Source of the DNA: Georgenia thermotolerans
GTDB lineage: Bacteria > Actinomycetota > Actinomycetes > Actinomycetales > Actinomycetaceae
Length of the DNA: 63,300 bases
Assembly (NCBI RefSeq): GCF_009193185.1
Contig: NZ_VUKF01000026.1
Location: 1 to 63,300 of the forward strand
Reading direction: 5' to 3'
This document shows positions 13,328 through 21,241 of the stretch, piece by piece. Within the stretch, counting starts at the first letter, position 1. Every line of letters starts with the position of its first letter. Under the pieces are notes generated by a model. The model did no database searches, was not told the origin of the DNA, and saw nothing but the letters and a program-made list of their open reading frames with translations. The translations under genes and the position numbers were made by a program.

Positions 13328-14671
13328 ATGCTCCAGCGCATCGATCTTCGTGGCCAGACCCTGACCTCCGCCGAGCTCGCCGGCGTGCTGCCGCGCGCCG
13401 CGCTCGACGTCGAGGCGGCGATGGCCCAGATCCGTCCGGTCATCGACGACGTCCGGGCCCGCGGTGCGGCCGCCCTGCGCGACCTCGGTGAGCGGTTCGA
13501 CGGCGTGCGCCCCGAGCACCTGCGGGTGCCGGCCGCCGCGATCACCCAGGCGCTCGAGCGGCTCGACCCGGCGGTGCGCGCGGCCCTGGAGATCTCCATC
13601 GCGCACAACCGCGCCGGCCACGAGGCACAGCTGCCGCGCGAGACGACCACGCCGATCGTCGACGGCGGCGTGGTGCGCCAGCGCTGGGTGCCGGTGCGCC
13701 GGGTGGGCCTGTACGTGCCCGGCGGCCTCGCCGTCTACCCCTCCAGCGTCGTGATGAACGCCGTGCCCGCCCAGGTCGCCGGCGTGGAGGAGCTGGCGAT
13801 CGCCAGCCCCCCGCAGAAGGAGTTCGGCGGCCTGCCGCACCCGGTGATCCTCGCCGCCTGCGCGCTGCTGGGGGTCGAGGAGGTCTACGCCGTCGGCGGC
13901 GCCCAGGCCGTCGCCATGTTCGCCTACGGCGCCCGCGCCGAGACCGACGCCGACCGGGCCGCCGCCGGGCTGGACGGCGACCAGCTGTGCGCCCCGGTGG
14001 ACGTCGTCACCGGCCCGGGCAACGTCTACGTCGCGGCGGCCAAGCGGGCCGTGCGCGGCGTGGTCGGCATCGACGCCGAGGCCGGTACCACCGAGATCGC
14101 GGTGCTCGCCGACGCGACCGCGGACCCGCGGTTCGTCGCCGTCGACCTCATCTCCCAGGCCGAGCACGACCCGGCGGCCGCGTCGGTGCTCATCACCGAC
14201 TCCGTCGAGCTCGCCGACGCCGTCGACGCCGAGATCGAGCGGCGGGTGCCGGCCACCAAGCACGCCGAGCGGGTGCGCACCGCGCTGTCCGGCCCCCAGT
14301 CCGGCACCGTGCTGGTCACGGACCTCGACCACGCCGTGGCCGCGGCGGACGCCTACGGCGCCGAGCACCTCGAGGTGCAGACGGAGAACGCCGCGGCGGT
14401 GGCCGACCGAATCCGCAACGCCGGGGCGATCTTCGTCGGCCCGTACACCCCGGTGCCGCTGGGCGACTACCTCGCCGGGTCCAACCACGTGCTGCCCACC
14501 GGCGGCACCGCGCGCTTCGCCAGCGGCCTCAACGTCACCGCGTACATCAAGTCCGTGCAGGTCATCGAGTACGGCGAGACCGCGCTCAAGGAGCTGGCGG
14601 CGCCGCTGACCGCGCTGGCCACCTCCGAGGACCTGCCCGCGCACGGCGAGGCGGTCAACGCGCGGTTCTGA
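13328..14671 (+). CDS. hisD: Histidinol dehydrogenase
   Basis: Catalyses the last two steps of histidine synthesis, histidinol to histidine, with two NAD+ and Zn2+. At 447 residues it has the usual length. Visible marks are [20 protein letters not shown], the [15 protein letters not shown]-binding segment, the zinc ligands in SQAEHD, and [10 protein letters not shown] carrying the catalytic Glu-His pair. It is normally followed directly by hisC, but here hisC is 5.4 kb downstream behind unrelated minus-strand genes. A hairpin closes the transcript. Confidence 0.98.
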
Positions 14672-14702: not shown

Positions 14703-15161
14703 ATGGGCGGCGTGCCTCGCATCCGCCGGTGGCTGGCCCGCGCGCCGATCCCGCTCCTGCGCGCCGGGCTCGGCCCGCTGCTGCCCGCCTTCGTGCTCGT
14801 CGAGCACCTCGGGCGGCGCACCGGGCGGCGGCGCTACGTGGTGCTCGAGGTCGTGCTGCGCGAGCCCGGCGCGGTGGTGGTGGCGGCCGGGTACGGCCCG
14901 ACGTCGCAGTGGTACCGCAACCTCGCCGCCGACCCCCGGGTGCGGTTGTGGTGGCGCCGCGCCGTCGGGGTCCGGGGGCGTGCCGAGCTGCTCGGCGCCG
15001 CCGAGGGGGCCCGGGTGCTCGAGCGCTACCGGCGCCTGCACCCCTGGCGCGCGCGGCTCCTCGCGCGCGCCCTCGGGATCGCCGACCTCGACCGACCCGG
15101 CACCCTCGAGCAGATCGCCGGACGCGTGCCGCTCGTCCGGCTGCGCTCGCCGCGGCTGTGA
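14703..15161 (+). CDS. Nitroreductase family deazaflavin-dependent oxidoreductase (DDN-like)
   Basis: A 152-residue split-barrel flavin-type protein related to mycobacterial Ddn, which uses coenzyme F420. The family pattern is visible: EHLGRRTGRRRYVVLEV, then VAAGYGPTSQWYRNLAADPR, with the conserved W-Y/R-N-L motif. Such enzymes reduce quinones or other electrophiles. Whether this one uses F420, FMN or heme cannot be told from the sequence. Neither ATG 14703 nor the in-frame GTG 14712 has a clear ribosome site. It is convergent with recQ, with 3 nt between the stops. Confidence 0.8.
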   Translation: MGGVPRIRRWLARAPIPLLRAGLGPLLPAFVLVEHLGRRTGRRRYVVLEVVLREPGAVVVAAGYGPTSQWYRNLAADPRVRLWWRRAVGVRGRAELLGAAEGARVLERYRRLHPWRARLLARALGIADLDRPGTLEQIAGRVPLVRLRSPRL

Positions 15162-15164
15162 CCC

Positions 15165-17455
<2,291 letters not shown>

Positions 17456-17459
<4 letters not shown>

Positions 17460-19168
17460 GAATCGTCCCCTCCGTCGGCGTCCACGCTCTCACAGTCCAC
17501 GCGTCCGCCGTCGCCGGGGTGTGGGCGGCCCGGGTCCCGGTCGCCGGGCCTGAGATCCGGGTCGGCGAGACACGGGTCGGCGGCCTCCCCGTCGGGCGCG
17601 TCGAGCACAGAGTCGACGGCATGGGCGGCGGCGAGCTCCTCGGCGAGCGCCCAGCTCTCGAGCAGCACCGTGGTGGCGTAGGCGGTGTCCAGCGGCTCTC
17701 CGGACCACTCCGGGGTGAGGGTCGTGGCGTCGACGGCGACGGCGGGGTGCCAGTCGTCGAGCCGCCCTGTCAACGCCGGCGCCGCCTGGACGACCGCGCC
17801 GCGCCGGTCGCGCACCGTCAGCGATCCGTCGGGATCGAGGGTGAGCGAGTACCGGCCCTCGTGGAGGAGCCGGTGGTGCGTGCCGCACAGGAGCACCATG
17901 TTGGTGAGCACCGTCAGGCCGCCGTCGGCCCAGTGCAGGACGTGGTGGGCCTGCAGGAAGTGCCGGCGCTTGCAGCCGGGGTAGCGGCAGCCGCGGTCCC
18001 TGCCCCACAGGGCCCGGACCAGGGCCGCGGTGGGTCTGCGCACCTTCGCGCCCACCTCGAGCGTGCGGCCCGAGACCCCCACGCCGTCGTCGTGGACCTC
18101 GACGACGATCCCCGCGTCACACGCGAGCCGCCGGGCGGTCTCGGGATGCAGGGGCGGGCCGTCGTCGAGGCGAGGCGTCGCGGGTAGGGCGTCGGCGGCG
18201 AGGGCTTGTGGCGGCGGGGCCGCGGCGCGCTCGGTCGGGGCCGGCGGGCGGGCGTCGGGTGCGGACGCGGCAGTTCGGGGGAGGTTGTCGTCGGCGGCGG
18301 GGACCGGCGGGGCGCCGGCCGGAGCGCCGGGCGAGCGCAGGTCGGCGAGCGTGACGTGCACGACGGTCTCCGGGGAGCGGCTGGTGCGCGGCCGGTCGTC
18401 ACCCACGTCCCGTGTCTCGGCGCACAGCTCGACCAGCGCGTCGGCGAGCGACCGGCTATCGGTGAGGGTCGGGTCGGGCTGCTCGTCCTCCTCCCTCCCG
18501 GGGGCGTCCGCCTCGGGCGGCGCCGTGCCGGCGAGCTCGGCCACGGCTCGGTCTCGGCGCGCCTCGAGCGCCTGGACGATGAGCGCGCCGTCCTCCGGGG
18601 AGAAGCGCCCGGACAGGAGCAGCGAGCCGTCCTCGGCCCACCGCCAGGACAGGCGCCGGCTCGCGTGACGGTCGAGGACGTCCTGGAGGCTCTGCGCCGT
18701 GCGCAGGCCGCGCACGAGGCGTTCGAGGTGGTGGGCGGGGGCGTGCAGGGCGATGTCGACCAGGTCGGCCTCGGTCCGCGGCGTGGCCACGCGGGTGATG
18801 GCCCGGACCTTGGAGTAGGAGAGCCGGCCCTGCGCGAAGGCGCCGACGGTGACCGGCAGGGCGCGCAGCGCGCGGGCGACGCGCACGTGCTCCCGGGCGG
18901 CCGCGGGCCCCATCCCGCAGCGCCAGCCCAGCCAGTGCGCCGCGGAGAGGATGCCGTAGTCGCCCCAGGCCTCGCGCGCGTCGAACTCGCCGAGCAGGAC
19001 GAGGAAGCGGCAGGTCGCGGCGGCGATGTGCGCCGCCAGGGTGGTCAGCTCGTCGATGAGCGCCTCGTCGGAGTCCGGGACGGGACCGCCCGGCGGCGCT
19101 GGTGGCCGCGACGCCGGAAGCCCGGGGGAGAGCACCGTCGCGGGCCGGTCCCCTGTCGCCAGCAGCAT
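17456..19168 (-). CDS. DUF222/13E12-family HNH endonuclease
   Basis: Protein of 570 residues with an N-terminal DUF222 helical domain (about 35-200: LIDELTTLAAHIAAATCRFL). A long Pro/Ala-rich, probably disordered linker follows (about 215-355), then an HNH nuclease domain at about 405-455 containing CRYPGCKRRHFLQAHHVLHW and TNMVLLCGTHHRLLH, with Cys pairs for zinc and the catalytic HH. This family is abundant in actinobacteria and its biological role is not established. ATG 19168 lies 5 nt from GGAGGT (19179-19174), which I prefer over the GTG at 19171. A near-consensus LexA box lies directly upstream, implying induction by DNA damage with recQ. Confidence 0.9.
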
Positions 19169-19183
19169 CACGCACCTCCGTCG

Positions 19184-19199
19184 TCGAAACTGTGTTCGA
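19184..19199 (-). promoter_or_regulatory. SOS (LexA) box before the DUF222-HNH/recQ operon
   Basis: TCGAAACTGTGTTCGA on the plus strand matches the actinobacterial LexA operator TCGAAC-N4-GTTCGA in 11 of 12 defined positions. It ends 4 nt upstream of the ribosome site of the HNH gene, where LexA binding would cover the promoter or transcription start. The 13E12/DUF222 family of Mycobacterium tuberculosis includes LexA-regulated members, which agrees with this reading. Confidence 0.72.
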
Positions 19200-19264
19200 C
19201 ACTACGGGTGGGGTGTGACATCGCTGTCGGGGCCGGAGGAGGGGTGTGGACAGTGCACCGGCGG

Positions 19265-19313
19265 CGTTTCCGCGGAAACGTCGGCGGCCCGTCGGTCACT
19301 CGGCGGCCCGCCG

Positions 19314-19335
<22 letters not shown>
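19265..19335. repeat. Copy 1 of a direct repeat with 16-bp palindrome (downstream of TMEM175 gene)
   Basis: Begins with the perfect palindrome CGTTTCCGCGGAAACG (19265-19280). The remaining roughly 55 bp align with copy 2 at 20000-20072 in the same orientation, sharing GTC-G-CACTCGGC, CCCGCCGTC and CCCCGCGC segments. It overlaps the last codons and stop of the TMEM175-like gene (stop at 19314). It could be an operator, a terminator or a small repetitive element. Confidence 0.6.
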
Positions 19336-19913
<578 letters not shown>

Positions 19914-19999
19914 GAGTCGACGCTAGGCGACGCCGGGCGGGACGACCCGGCGACGGCGAGGGATGCCTGGCCCGTCGGGCGGTGAGGCGAGCTCCGGCA

Positions 20000-20072
20000 C
20001 GTTTCCGTGGAAACGCTCCGGCGTGCGGGCCGCCGTCCGGCACTCGGCCACCCGCCGTCGCCCCCGCGCGCG
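20000..20072. repeat. Copy 2 of the direct repeat with palindrome (between TMEM175 gene and hisC)
   Basis: Begins with CGTTTCCGTGGAAACG (20000-20015), which differs from the copy 1 palindrome at one base, then aligns with copy 1 over about 55 bp with small gaps. It lies upstream of both the TMEM175 gene (start 19913, minus) and hisC (start 20090, plus), where it could act on either promoter. Copies are about 735 bp apart. Confidence 0.6.
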
Positions 20073-20077
20073 GCACC

Positions 20078-20083
20078 TAGACT
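20078..20083 (+). promoter_or_regulatory. -10 element of hisC (leaderless start)
   Basis: TAGACT at 20078-20083 is followed after 6 nt by the GTG start at 20090. No Shine-Dalgarno sequence is present. The same hexamer and geometry occur before dnaE. Confidence 0.55.
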
Positions 20084-20089
20084 CGTGGG

Positions 20090-21241
20090 GTGACCACCCC
20101 CTCCACCGAGGCGACCGAGAACGTGCGGCTGCCGCTGCGCCCGGAGCTCGAGGGCCTCGAGCCCTACGGTGCGCCGCAGCTGGACGTGCCGGTGCGGCTG
20201 AACGTCAACGAGAACCCCTACCCGCCGTCCGAGGCGGTCGTGGCGGACATCGCCGCCGCCGTCGTCGAGGCGGCCCACGGCCTCAACCGCTACCCGGACC
20301 GCGACTTCGGCACGCTGCGCGCCGAGCTCGCCGAGTACCTGCGGGTGGAGTCCGGCGTCGCGCTCGGCCCGGACCAGATCTGGGCCGCGAACGGCTCCAA
20401 CGAGGTCATGCAGCACCTGCTGCAGGCCTTCGGCGGCACCGGGCGCGCGGTCCTGTCCTTCGCCCCCACGTACTCGATGTACCCCGAGTACGCCCGCGAC
20501 ACCCTCACCGCGTGGATCGCCGGCCGGCGCGAGGAGGACTTCAGCCTCGACCCCGGCTACGCCGTCGCCCAGATCGCCGCCCACCGCCCCGCGGTCATCC
20601 TCCTCGCCAGCCCGAACAACCCCACCGGCACCGCCCTGCCGCTGAGCACCATCGAGGCCATCTGCGAGGCGGCGGCGACCACCGGCCCCGCCGGTGCCGA
20701 CGGCGGCCCCACCGCCTCGGTCGTCGTCGTCGACGAGGCGTACGGCGAGTTCCGCCGCGAGGGCACCCCCACGGCCTTGGACCTGCTCGACCGCTTCCCG
20801 CACCTGGCGGTCTCCCGGACCATGTCCAAGGCCTTCGGCATGGCCGGGCTGCGCCTGGGGTACCTGGCCGCCACGCCGGCGCTGGTGGACAAGCTGCGCG
20901 TCGTCCGGCTGCCCTACCACCTCTCCGCCGTCACCCAGGCCGCGGCCCTGGCGGCGCTGCGCCACCGCGGCGAGCTCATGGGCCAGGTGGCCTCGCTGCG
21001 CGCCGAGCGCGACGAGCTCGTGACCTGGCTGCGGGGGCACGGGACGCAGGTGGCGGACTCGGACGCGAACTTCGTGCTCTTCGGAGTTTTCGAGGATCGC
21101 CACGCGGTGTGGAATGGTCTGCTGGAGCGCGGCGTCCTCATCCGTGAGGTGGGGCCCGCGGGCTGGCTGCGCGTCTCGGTCGGGACGCCGCAGGAGACGG
21201 CCGCCTTCAAGGCGGCCCTGGAGGAGGTGCTGGGCTGGTGA
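20090..21241 (+). CDS. hisC: Histidinol-phosphate aminotransferase
   Basis: PLP-dependent class I/II aminotransferase that converts imidazole acetol-phosphate to histidinol phosphate. Motifs are [11 protein letters not shown] at the N-terminus, [28 protein letters not shown], and the PLP Lys247 in [19 protein letters not shown]-terminal Arg (GWLRVSVGT) binds the phosphate. The protein is 383 residues. It starts the second his operon of the window; hisB begins inside its stop codon (GTGA overlap). A leaderless start is predicted. Confidence 0.97.

What the first reader, a model, noticed from the sequence alone, without database searches (positions are those of the whole stretch)
17456..19199. 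DNA-damage-inducible DUF222-HNH / RecQ operon
A 16-bp site, TCGAAACTGTGTTCGA (19184-19199), matches the actinobacterial LexA operator TCGAAC-N4-GTTCGA with a single mismatch. It lies 4 nt before the ribosome site of the HNH gene, whose stop overlaps the recQ start by 4 nt. DUF222/13E12 nucleases are abundant in actinobacteria with no settled function, though some are LexA targets in Mycobacterium tuberculosis. Here the nuclease is translationally coupled to a RecQ helicase, which suggests a nuclease-helicase repair or anti-element pair.
Basis: partly seen in the sequence, partly recalled or inferred. Interest (0 to 1): 0.72.

Follow-up and report, generated by a model that had tools for sequence, protein, structure and literature searches.

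The report
Doubly damage-inducible nuclease-helicase operon
In an actinobacterium, a gene for a DNA-cutting enzyme sits directly in front of a DNA-unwinding enzyme gene, and their shared promoter carries recognition sites for both of the cell's DNA-damage alarm systems; about half of the sampled relatives of this little-understood cutting enzyme carry at least one such site.

Summary
Confirmed: LexA-type box 19184-19199, DUF222-HNH gene, 4-nt overlap with a recQ-like gene. Interpretation partly right. (1) The helicase is RqlH (RecQ core, Cys4, ComF-like tail), not canonical RecQ. (2) A second damage signal was missed: a PafBC-type promoter, TGTCAC-N10-TAGTGT (19220-19199), whose last T is the box's first base. 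The same stack stands in all three genomes found with the HNH-rqlH pair and in G094, where the HNH gene is missing. (3) The pair is rare: 3 of 23 RqlH genomes in a 121-genome family sample, 0 of 80 named RqlH loci (6 of them with under 1.5 kb upstream). rqlH itself has a PafBC-like motif in 45 of 79 named loci; the HNH gene looks like a later arrival. (4) Damage control is a frequent trait of this nuclease family: here 11 of 11 DUF222 genes carry a PafBC site (9) or LexA box (4); elsewhere 48 of 101, against 0 of 30 parB controls, though some families have none. LexA control of such genes is published for M. tuberculosis; two searches found no report of PafBC control. What the pair does to DNA is inferred.

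The parts
19199..19220 (-). PafBC-type promoter: TGTCAC (19220-19215), 10-base spacer, TAGTGT -10 hexamer (19204-19199)
   Evidence: Matches the TGTCAC-10N-TA-3N-T variant given in PMC8151990. One of two sites of the pattern TGTCR-N11-TANNNT in the window and of 48 in the genome, reversed control 12. Same register in G107, G002, G094.
19184..19199 (-). LexA (SOS) box TCGAACACAGTTTCGA, overlapping the -10 hexamer by one base; predicted transcription start lies inside it (inference)
   Evidence: equivalents in G107, G002, G094
19175..19179 (-). ribosome site GGAGG of the HNH gene
   Evidence: Sequence
17456..19168 (-). DUF222-HNH nuclease gene, 570 aa from ATG 19168 (571 aa from GTG 19171)
   Evidence: PF02720 45.4 bits, cut-off 24.4; HNH PF01844 21.1 bits, just under its cut-off of 21.4; full C-x4-C..HH..N..C-x2-HH-x3-H motif
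17482..17497 (-). GACTGTGAGAGCGTGG: sequence also found upstream of rqlH in G022 and G094, which have no HNH gene there; here it lies in the last codons of the HNH gene
17467..17473 (-). GGAGGGG, ribosome site of rqlH inside the HNH gene
   Evidence: Sequence
15165..17459 (-). rqlH: RecQ-like helicase, four cysteines of a zinc site, C-terminal ComF-like phosphoribosyltransferase domain, 764 aa; starts in the ATGA overlap with the HNH stop
   Evidence: (PsyrT model 1.7e-199)
13328..14671 (+). hisD, neighbour on one side of rqlH
   Evidence: PF00815; synteny
20090..21241 (+). aminotransferase gene read as hisC, neighbour on the other side
   Evidence: PF00155; synteny

Best explanation
This is a two-gene, translationally coupled operon (DUF222-HNH nuclease, then RqlH helicase) driven by one stacked DNA-damage promoter. 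PafBC would activate RNA polymerase at TGTCAC-N10-TAGTGT; LexA would sit over the start point and hold the promoter shut until RecA triggers its self-cleavage. rqlH looks like an old PafBC-type damage gene, between hisD and hisC in this part of the actinobacteria; in a few Georgenia-like species a DUF222-HNH gene with its own damage promoter came to lie in front of it, so that both proteins now rise together under both alarms. Shown: sequences, architecture, recurrence of the promoter in four genomes and of the pair in three, enrichment of both motifs at DUF222 genes and of the PafBC motif at rqlH. Inferred: binding, induction, and the work of the pair, most likely that RqlH unwinds and the HNH nuclease cuts damaged or foreign DNA.
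For: Stacked promoter with identical register (last T of the -10 is the first base of the box) in own, G107, G002 and G094. lexA, recA and pafB-pafC-tatA-tatC (PF19187 HTH_PafC 2.6e-36) are in the genome. The 48 genomic PafBC-type sites (reversed control 12) include one at recA; of the 30 made into loci I sent 10 downstream genes to Pfam, and 9 had hits: SbcD, exonuclease V gamma, O6-methylguanine methyltransferase, DNA polymerase III alpha, DinB type, topoisomerase, thymidylate kinase, RadA-like, SprT-like. Elsewhere: 32 of 101 DUF222 genes with a PafBC site against 2 on the opposite strand and 0 reversed; 25 of 101 with a box against 0 reversed; 48 of 101 either; parB control genes 0 of 30 for both. 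rqlH: PafBC motif with at most 1 mismatch in 45 of 79 named loci within -120..+20, opposite strand 2, reversed 0. The M. smegmatis RqlH protein (MSMEG_5935; identity of the gene) is 1.9-fold lower in a pafBC deletion (PMC5656591 table passage). Five putative HNH endonucleases of M. tuberculosis are induced RecA-dependently (PMC8151990 passage).
Against: No expression or binding data for this organism. The motif was first noticed in this genome's DUF222 promoters, so the own-genome count is partly after the fact; several of those promoters are duplicates (L188/L189 79 of 100, L192/L193 82 of 100 bases identical). Some families lack both motifs at DUF222 genes: f9 (0 of 22), f5 (0 of 5), f20 (0 of 5). 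In a wider rqlH window (-250..+20) the one-mismatch count is 48 of 78 against 4 opposite and 5 reversed, and hisC controls had 3 of 22 exact matches on the opposite strand, not looked into, so the loose motif has some background. In G094 no HNH gene lies between promoter and rqlH; loss is likelier than a state before gain, but this is not settled. The HNH-rqlH pair is known from three genomes only.
Confidence: 0.72

Rival explanations
1. No partnership: the DUF222-HNH gene is a damage-inducible, possibly selfish or accessory gene that landed in a variable slot between hisC and rqlH. It took over the promoter by position only, and the two proteins act apart.
For: 11 DUF222 genes here, the other 10 elsewhere in the genome; pairing in only 3 of 23 genomes; the sequence before rqlH differs between relatives; G094 lacks the HNH gene; the HNH gene's end runs into sequence that relatives have before rqlH.
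Against: The 4-nt overlap and stacked promoter are kept in all three paired genomes including the more distant G002 (HNH 54-57% identical), which chance neighbours need not keep.
Confidence: 0.4
2. Damage-triggered defence pair: RqlH acts like PsyrT/RqlH toxins and the HNH protein stands where many Gram-negatives have the DprA-like antitoxin RqlI/PsyrA, or acts as a second effector; phage-caused damage releases both.
For: Best PADLOC model is PsyrT, 1.7e-199; E. coli RqlH is genotoxic through its PRTase domain without RqlI (PMC4670107 passages); the PRPP-loop residues DDYTDSGWT are present.
Against: 99.6% of the Gram-positive strains in PMC4670107 have RqlH without RqlI (passage), so a solitary RqlH is normal; no DprA-like gene among the neighbours scanned; the HNH protein matches no PADLOC model at E 0.01; the locus sits between his genes, not in a known defence island.
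Confidence: 0.12
3. PafBC promoter only: the LexA box is a chance or decayed site and the operon is not an SOS gene.
For: The box scores below all six training sites (19.0 against 21.3-25.3 bits); five other DUF222 promoters here have PafBC sites followed only by a half box.
Against: Box kept in the same register in four genomes with different central bases; the same GTTTCGA half occurs in boxes before a second DUF222 gene and a radical SAM gene here.
Confidence: 0.1

Closest known systems
13E12/DUF222 HNH genes of the M. tuberculosis LexA regulon (PMC4181829 section 27 read; PMC5005354 and PMC8151990 passages)
   Same: Same protein family, LexA box at the promoter, RecA-dependent induction of HNH genes there; a role in a LexA-controlled repair system was already proposed
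   Different: Here a PafBC-type promoter is stacked on the LexA box, and the gene heads an operon with rqlH; the partners proposed there were RuvABC and DnaE2/ImuAB
M. smegmatis RqlH (MSMEG_5935; PMC4670107 and PMC5656591 passages)
   Same: RecQ-like helicase with a PRTase domain; protein lower in a pafBC deletion
   Different: Here rqlH is second in an operon behind an HNH gene with a LexA box. The M. smegmatis locus itself was not looked at; none of 80 named RqlH loci had an HNH gene in front
RqlHI / PsyrTA toxin-antitoxin systems
   Same: Helicase-PRTase protein of the same family
   Different: No DprA-like antitoxin gene beside it; a nuclease gene precedes it
recA of this same genome, which has both signals
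   Same: PafBC-type site and LexA box before one damage gene
   Different: At recA the two lie about 66 bases apart, box upstream; here they overlap by one base, box downstream

Membership tests
DUF222 (13E12) HNH nucleases | PF02720 match over cut-off | tested here: met
   45.4 bits against 24.4 in the genome search; hmmscan missed it at E 10, perhaps through its filters; orthologues G107 1.4e-15 and G002 6.3e-11
DUF222 (13E12) HNH nucleases | C-terminal HNH site with zinc and catalytic residues | tested here: met
   Motif complete; C394, C399, H408, H409, C428, H432, H436 invariant in 16 sequences
RqlH | RecQ helicase core, Cys4, no HRDC, C-terminal PRTase/ComF domain (definition partly recalled) | tested here: met
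   TIGR00614 223.6 bits (cut-off 219.8), TIGR00201 comF over 710-762, under its own cut-off; PF00156 over cut-off; Cys 479/499/502/505, though the RecQ zinc Pfam is only 12.1 bits; no HRDC hit up to E 10
Canonical RecQ | Equivalog TIGR01389 over cut-off, HRDC domain | tested here: not met
   241 bits against 640; no HRDC
[quoted passage not shown]
LexA regulon | LexA binding and induction by damage | not testable with these tools
   Needs footprint or RNA data
PafBC regulon | TGTCRN-N10-TA-N3-T at promoter distance and pafB, pafC in the genome | tested here: met
PafBC regulon | PafBC-dependent induction | not testable with these tools
   Only the RqlH homologue of M. smegmatis has data that I saw
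PsyrTA / RqlHI | Adjacent DprA-like antitoxin gene | tested here: not met
   Neighbours scanned are HNH, TMEM175, F420 reductase-like, hisD, hisC

The most novel reading that the evidence does not exclude
DUF222-HNH nucleases as a class are damage-response enzymes of many actinobacteria under two alarms, LexA and PafBC; here one has joined the PafBC-controlled helicase RqlH in a single switch that needs both PafBC activation and LexA release, making a dedicated nuclease-helicase machine for damaged or invading DNA.
Probability: 0.3. Interest if true: 0.72.

Novelty: new variant of a known kind. Interest (0 to 1): 0.55.

Why it matters
DUF222/13E12 nucleases are numerous in actinobacteria (matches in 111 of 149 genomes of the order sample) and have no settled job. 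Finding that about half of those sampled carry a LexA or PafBC signal says when the cell wants them, and names conditions in which to assay them. A natural operon with RqlH, itself apparently a damage gene with a puzzling phosphoribosyltransferase domain, gives a candidate partner and a simple test.

Tried and rejected
Conserved HNH-RecQ pairing: rejected. Canonical RecQ: rejected. ParB-like DNA-binding fold for the DUF222 domain: the model of this protein (mean pLDDT 60) gave ParB/Noc as best PDB matches (best E 0.041), and a profile search listed Spo0J at E 2.3; but profile comparison was weak (P 0.037 and 0.0072; reversed controls 0.35 and 0.12) and a better model of another DUF222 protein (pLDDT 75) showed no ParB among the 50 rows listed. 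Kept as a lead only. Viral fold library: mostly HNH matches, none at E<=0.001. Plasmid, phage and PHROG searches: HNH and helicase relatives only, no record covering the operon. Consensus promoter/terminator scan of 15000-20200: none found. Three HNH relatives of the family without rqlH beside them (L044-L046) have neither motif within 600 bases of the match. Order and class searches with the HNH protein gave no answer, so adjacency outside the family rests on the 80 RqlH loci.

Full report
What was checked. The likelier start is ATG 19168, six bases after GGAGG and kept in the orthologue G107. A one-mismatch box in a 63-kb window is weak evidence by itself. Its weight comes from the genome: the same pattern stands before lexA, recA, an operon read as imuA'/imuB and a gene read as dnaE2, and a matrix made from those six sites alone gives this box 19.0 bits, against 21.3-25.3 for the sites themselves.

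What the proteins are. The HNH protein matches DUF222 (PF02720, 45.4 bits; missed by hmmscan) and keeps the whole HNH site. Its HNH domain is closest in the PDB to IscB and McrA by sequence profile (2e-6 and 2e-4). The helicase is an RqlH: RecQ core, four cysteines, ComF-like PRTase tail, no HRDC; PADLOC names it PsyrT. That this make-up defines RqlH is partly recalled and partly from PMC4670107 passages.

The missed signal. Directly before the box lies TGTCACACCCCACCCGTAGTGT (19220-19199), a PafBC-type promoter; TGTCAC-10N-TA-3N-T is one of three variants given for M. tuberculosis (PMC8151990 passage). The last T of the -10 hexamer is the first base of the LexA box. I first saw the motif when comparing this genome's DUF222 promoters, so the counts in other genomes and at other genes matter more than the own-genome count. 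The genome has 48 sites of the pattern TGTCR-N11-TANNNT against 12 for the reversed pattern. One stands before recA. Of the 30 sites made into loci I sent ten downstream genes to Pfam; nine had hits, read as sbcD, recC-like, ogt-like, dnaE, dinB, topA, tmk, radA-like and sprT-like, and one had none. That is what a PafBC regulon should look like. pafB, pafC, tatA and tatC lie together in contig C73.

DUF222 genes as a damage class. The own genome has 15 PF02720 matches in 11 genes. Nine have a PafBC site and four a LexA box upstream; every gene has at least one. Two pairs of these promoters are recent copies. For other genomes of the order, one search listed its best 150 places, 147 of them outside this genome; I used 103 of these 147, so the sample is of high-scoring members and not a random draw. 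Two were dropped as cut off by contig ends, leaving 101 genes in 16 families. PafBC site: 32 (opposite strand 2, reversed 0). LexA box: 25 (reversed 0). Either: 48. The same scan at 30 parB genes, 29 from other genomes of the order and one from this one, gave none (Fisher p 1.4e-7 for either). The trait is uneven: 11 of 12 in f7 and 6 of 8 in f4, but 0 of 22 in f9, 0 of 5 in f5 and 0 of 5 in f20. Three HNH relatives from the own family (L044-L046) have neither motif.

How the operon arose. In 19 of the 80 named RqlH loci both hisD and hisC lie on either side of rqlH (among them Georgenia, Promicromonospora, Demequina, Xylanimonas, Cellulomonas, Timonella, Flavimobilis, Actinomyces); five more have one of the two; the Streptomyces, Nocardioides and Amycolatopsis loci have neither within the flank. 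In 79 of the 80 named loci, those with enough upstream sequence, 45 have a PafBC motif with at most one mismatch within -120..+20, against 2 on the opposite strand and 0 reversed; exact matches 8, 0 and 0. In the wider span -250..+20 it is 48 of 78 against 4 and 5. In the family sample it is 13 of 21 against 3 and 0. Controls in -250..+20: hisD 3 of 21 and hisC 1 of 22 at one mismatch, none exact on the coding side, 3 of 22 exact on the opposite side of hisC (all). No named locus of 79 has a LexA box within 400 bases of rqlH. M. smegmatis MSMEG_5935, which PMC4670107 calls RqlH, is 1.9-fold lower as a protein without pafBC (PMC5656591 table passage). So rqlH looks like an old PafBC gene.

In the family sample of 121 genomes 23 have RqlH; only own, G107 (same genus) and G002 (another genus) have the HNH gene in front. 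A profile search of the frames in the fetched RqlH loci found no other DUF222 gene beside rqlH; the flank is about 1.5 kb for family loci and up to 5 kb for named ones, of which six have less than 1.5 kb upstream. The three paired genomes have the 4-nt overlap and the stacked promoter in the same register. G094 has the stacked promoter but no HNH gene; its box starts 180 bases before rqlH, as if the gene had been lost from between. The last codons of the HNH gene in own and G107 contain GACTGTGAGAGCGTGG, which G022 and G094 have upstream of rqlH without an HNH gene: the HNH frame runs through what looks like an older rqlH leader.

How it most likely works. In undamaged cells LexA covers the start point. 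Damage makes RecA filaments that free the box, and turns PafBC on, which recruits polymerase to a promoter without a usual -35 (no sigma-70 consensus promoter was found in 15000-20200). One transcript then yields both proteins by coupled translation. The stacking implies a switch that opens fully only when both alarms ring; this is inference. The work of the pair is also inference: a helicase of a family that unwinds 3'-5' (PMC4670107 passage) beside an HNH nuclease suits the opening and cutting of damaged, branched or foreign DNA.

What is known and what is not. LexA control of 13E12 genes is published for M. tuberculosis, with a proposed repair role (PMC4181829 section 27 read; PMC5005354 passages; PMC8151990 passages). 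Two searches for PafBC with HNH, 13E12 or DUF222 listed 5 and 2 papers; of those I opened PMC8151990 and PMC4181829 only. The one HNH passage of PMC8151990 speaks of RecA dependence. The LexA ChIP paper, the SOS-box paper and one SOS/PafBC comparison are not held and supplements could not be read, so PafBC control of some 13E12 gene may be in print there.

Verdict. By sequence a doubly damage-inducible operon of rare make-up, which opens onto a wider and testable rule about DUF222 nucleases. Strong on regulation by sequence, open on function.

Noticed in passing
G000:C25:74557-74572 (L001): LexA-type box TCGAACGCTCGTTCGA, no mismatch, just before a gene with ArdC-N and IrrE-type peptidase domains, perhaps an SOS-controlled mobile-element gene.
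   Followed up: no
G000:C28:138166-138181 (L002): LexA-type box before a radical SAM gene (PF04055); M. tuberculosis has a RecA-dependent 'DNA repair photolyase' that may be its counterpart.
   Followed up: no
G000:C40:22049-22064 (L005): Fully palindromic box TCGAACGCGCGTTCGA near a 338-aa frame without Pfam hit.
   Followed up: no
L187, L188, L189, L192, L193: Five DUF222 promoters with a PafBC site have a half box ATGTTCGA directly after the -10 hexamer: decayed LexA boxes or another element.
   Followed up: partly
G000:C54:38518 (L226): PafBC site before a 242-aa frame whose first residues resemble those of the DUF222 gene on C40 (L214); no Pfam hit: a possible twelfth, shortened copy.
   Followed up: no
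upstream of rqlH in L049, L051-L054, L074, L042, L050: The stretch before rqlH differs between relatives of the genus: TMEM175 plus HNH gene here and in G107, other sequence elsewhere, stacked promoter without HNH gene in G094.
   Followed up: partly
window 17459-19168, residues 34-165: The predicted DUF222 helical domain resembled ParB/Noc DNA-binding domains in one model but not in a second DUF222 model.
   Followed up: partly
DUF222 genes of family f9 (three contig lengths equal those of Demequina records): 0 of 22 carry either damage motif, although rqlH of six named Demequina loci has an exact PafBC motif: the nuclease family there left damage control or uses another signal.
   Followed up: no
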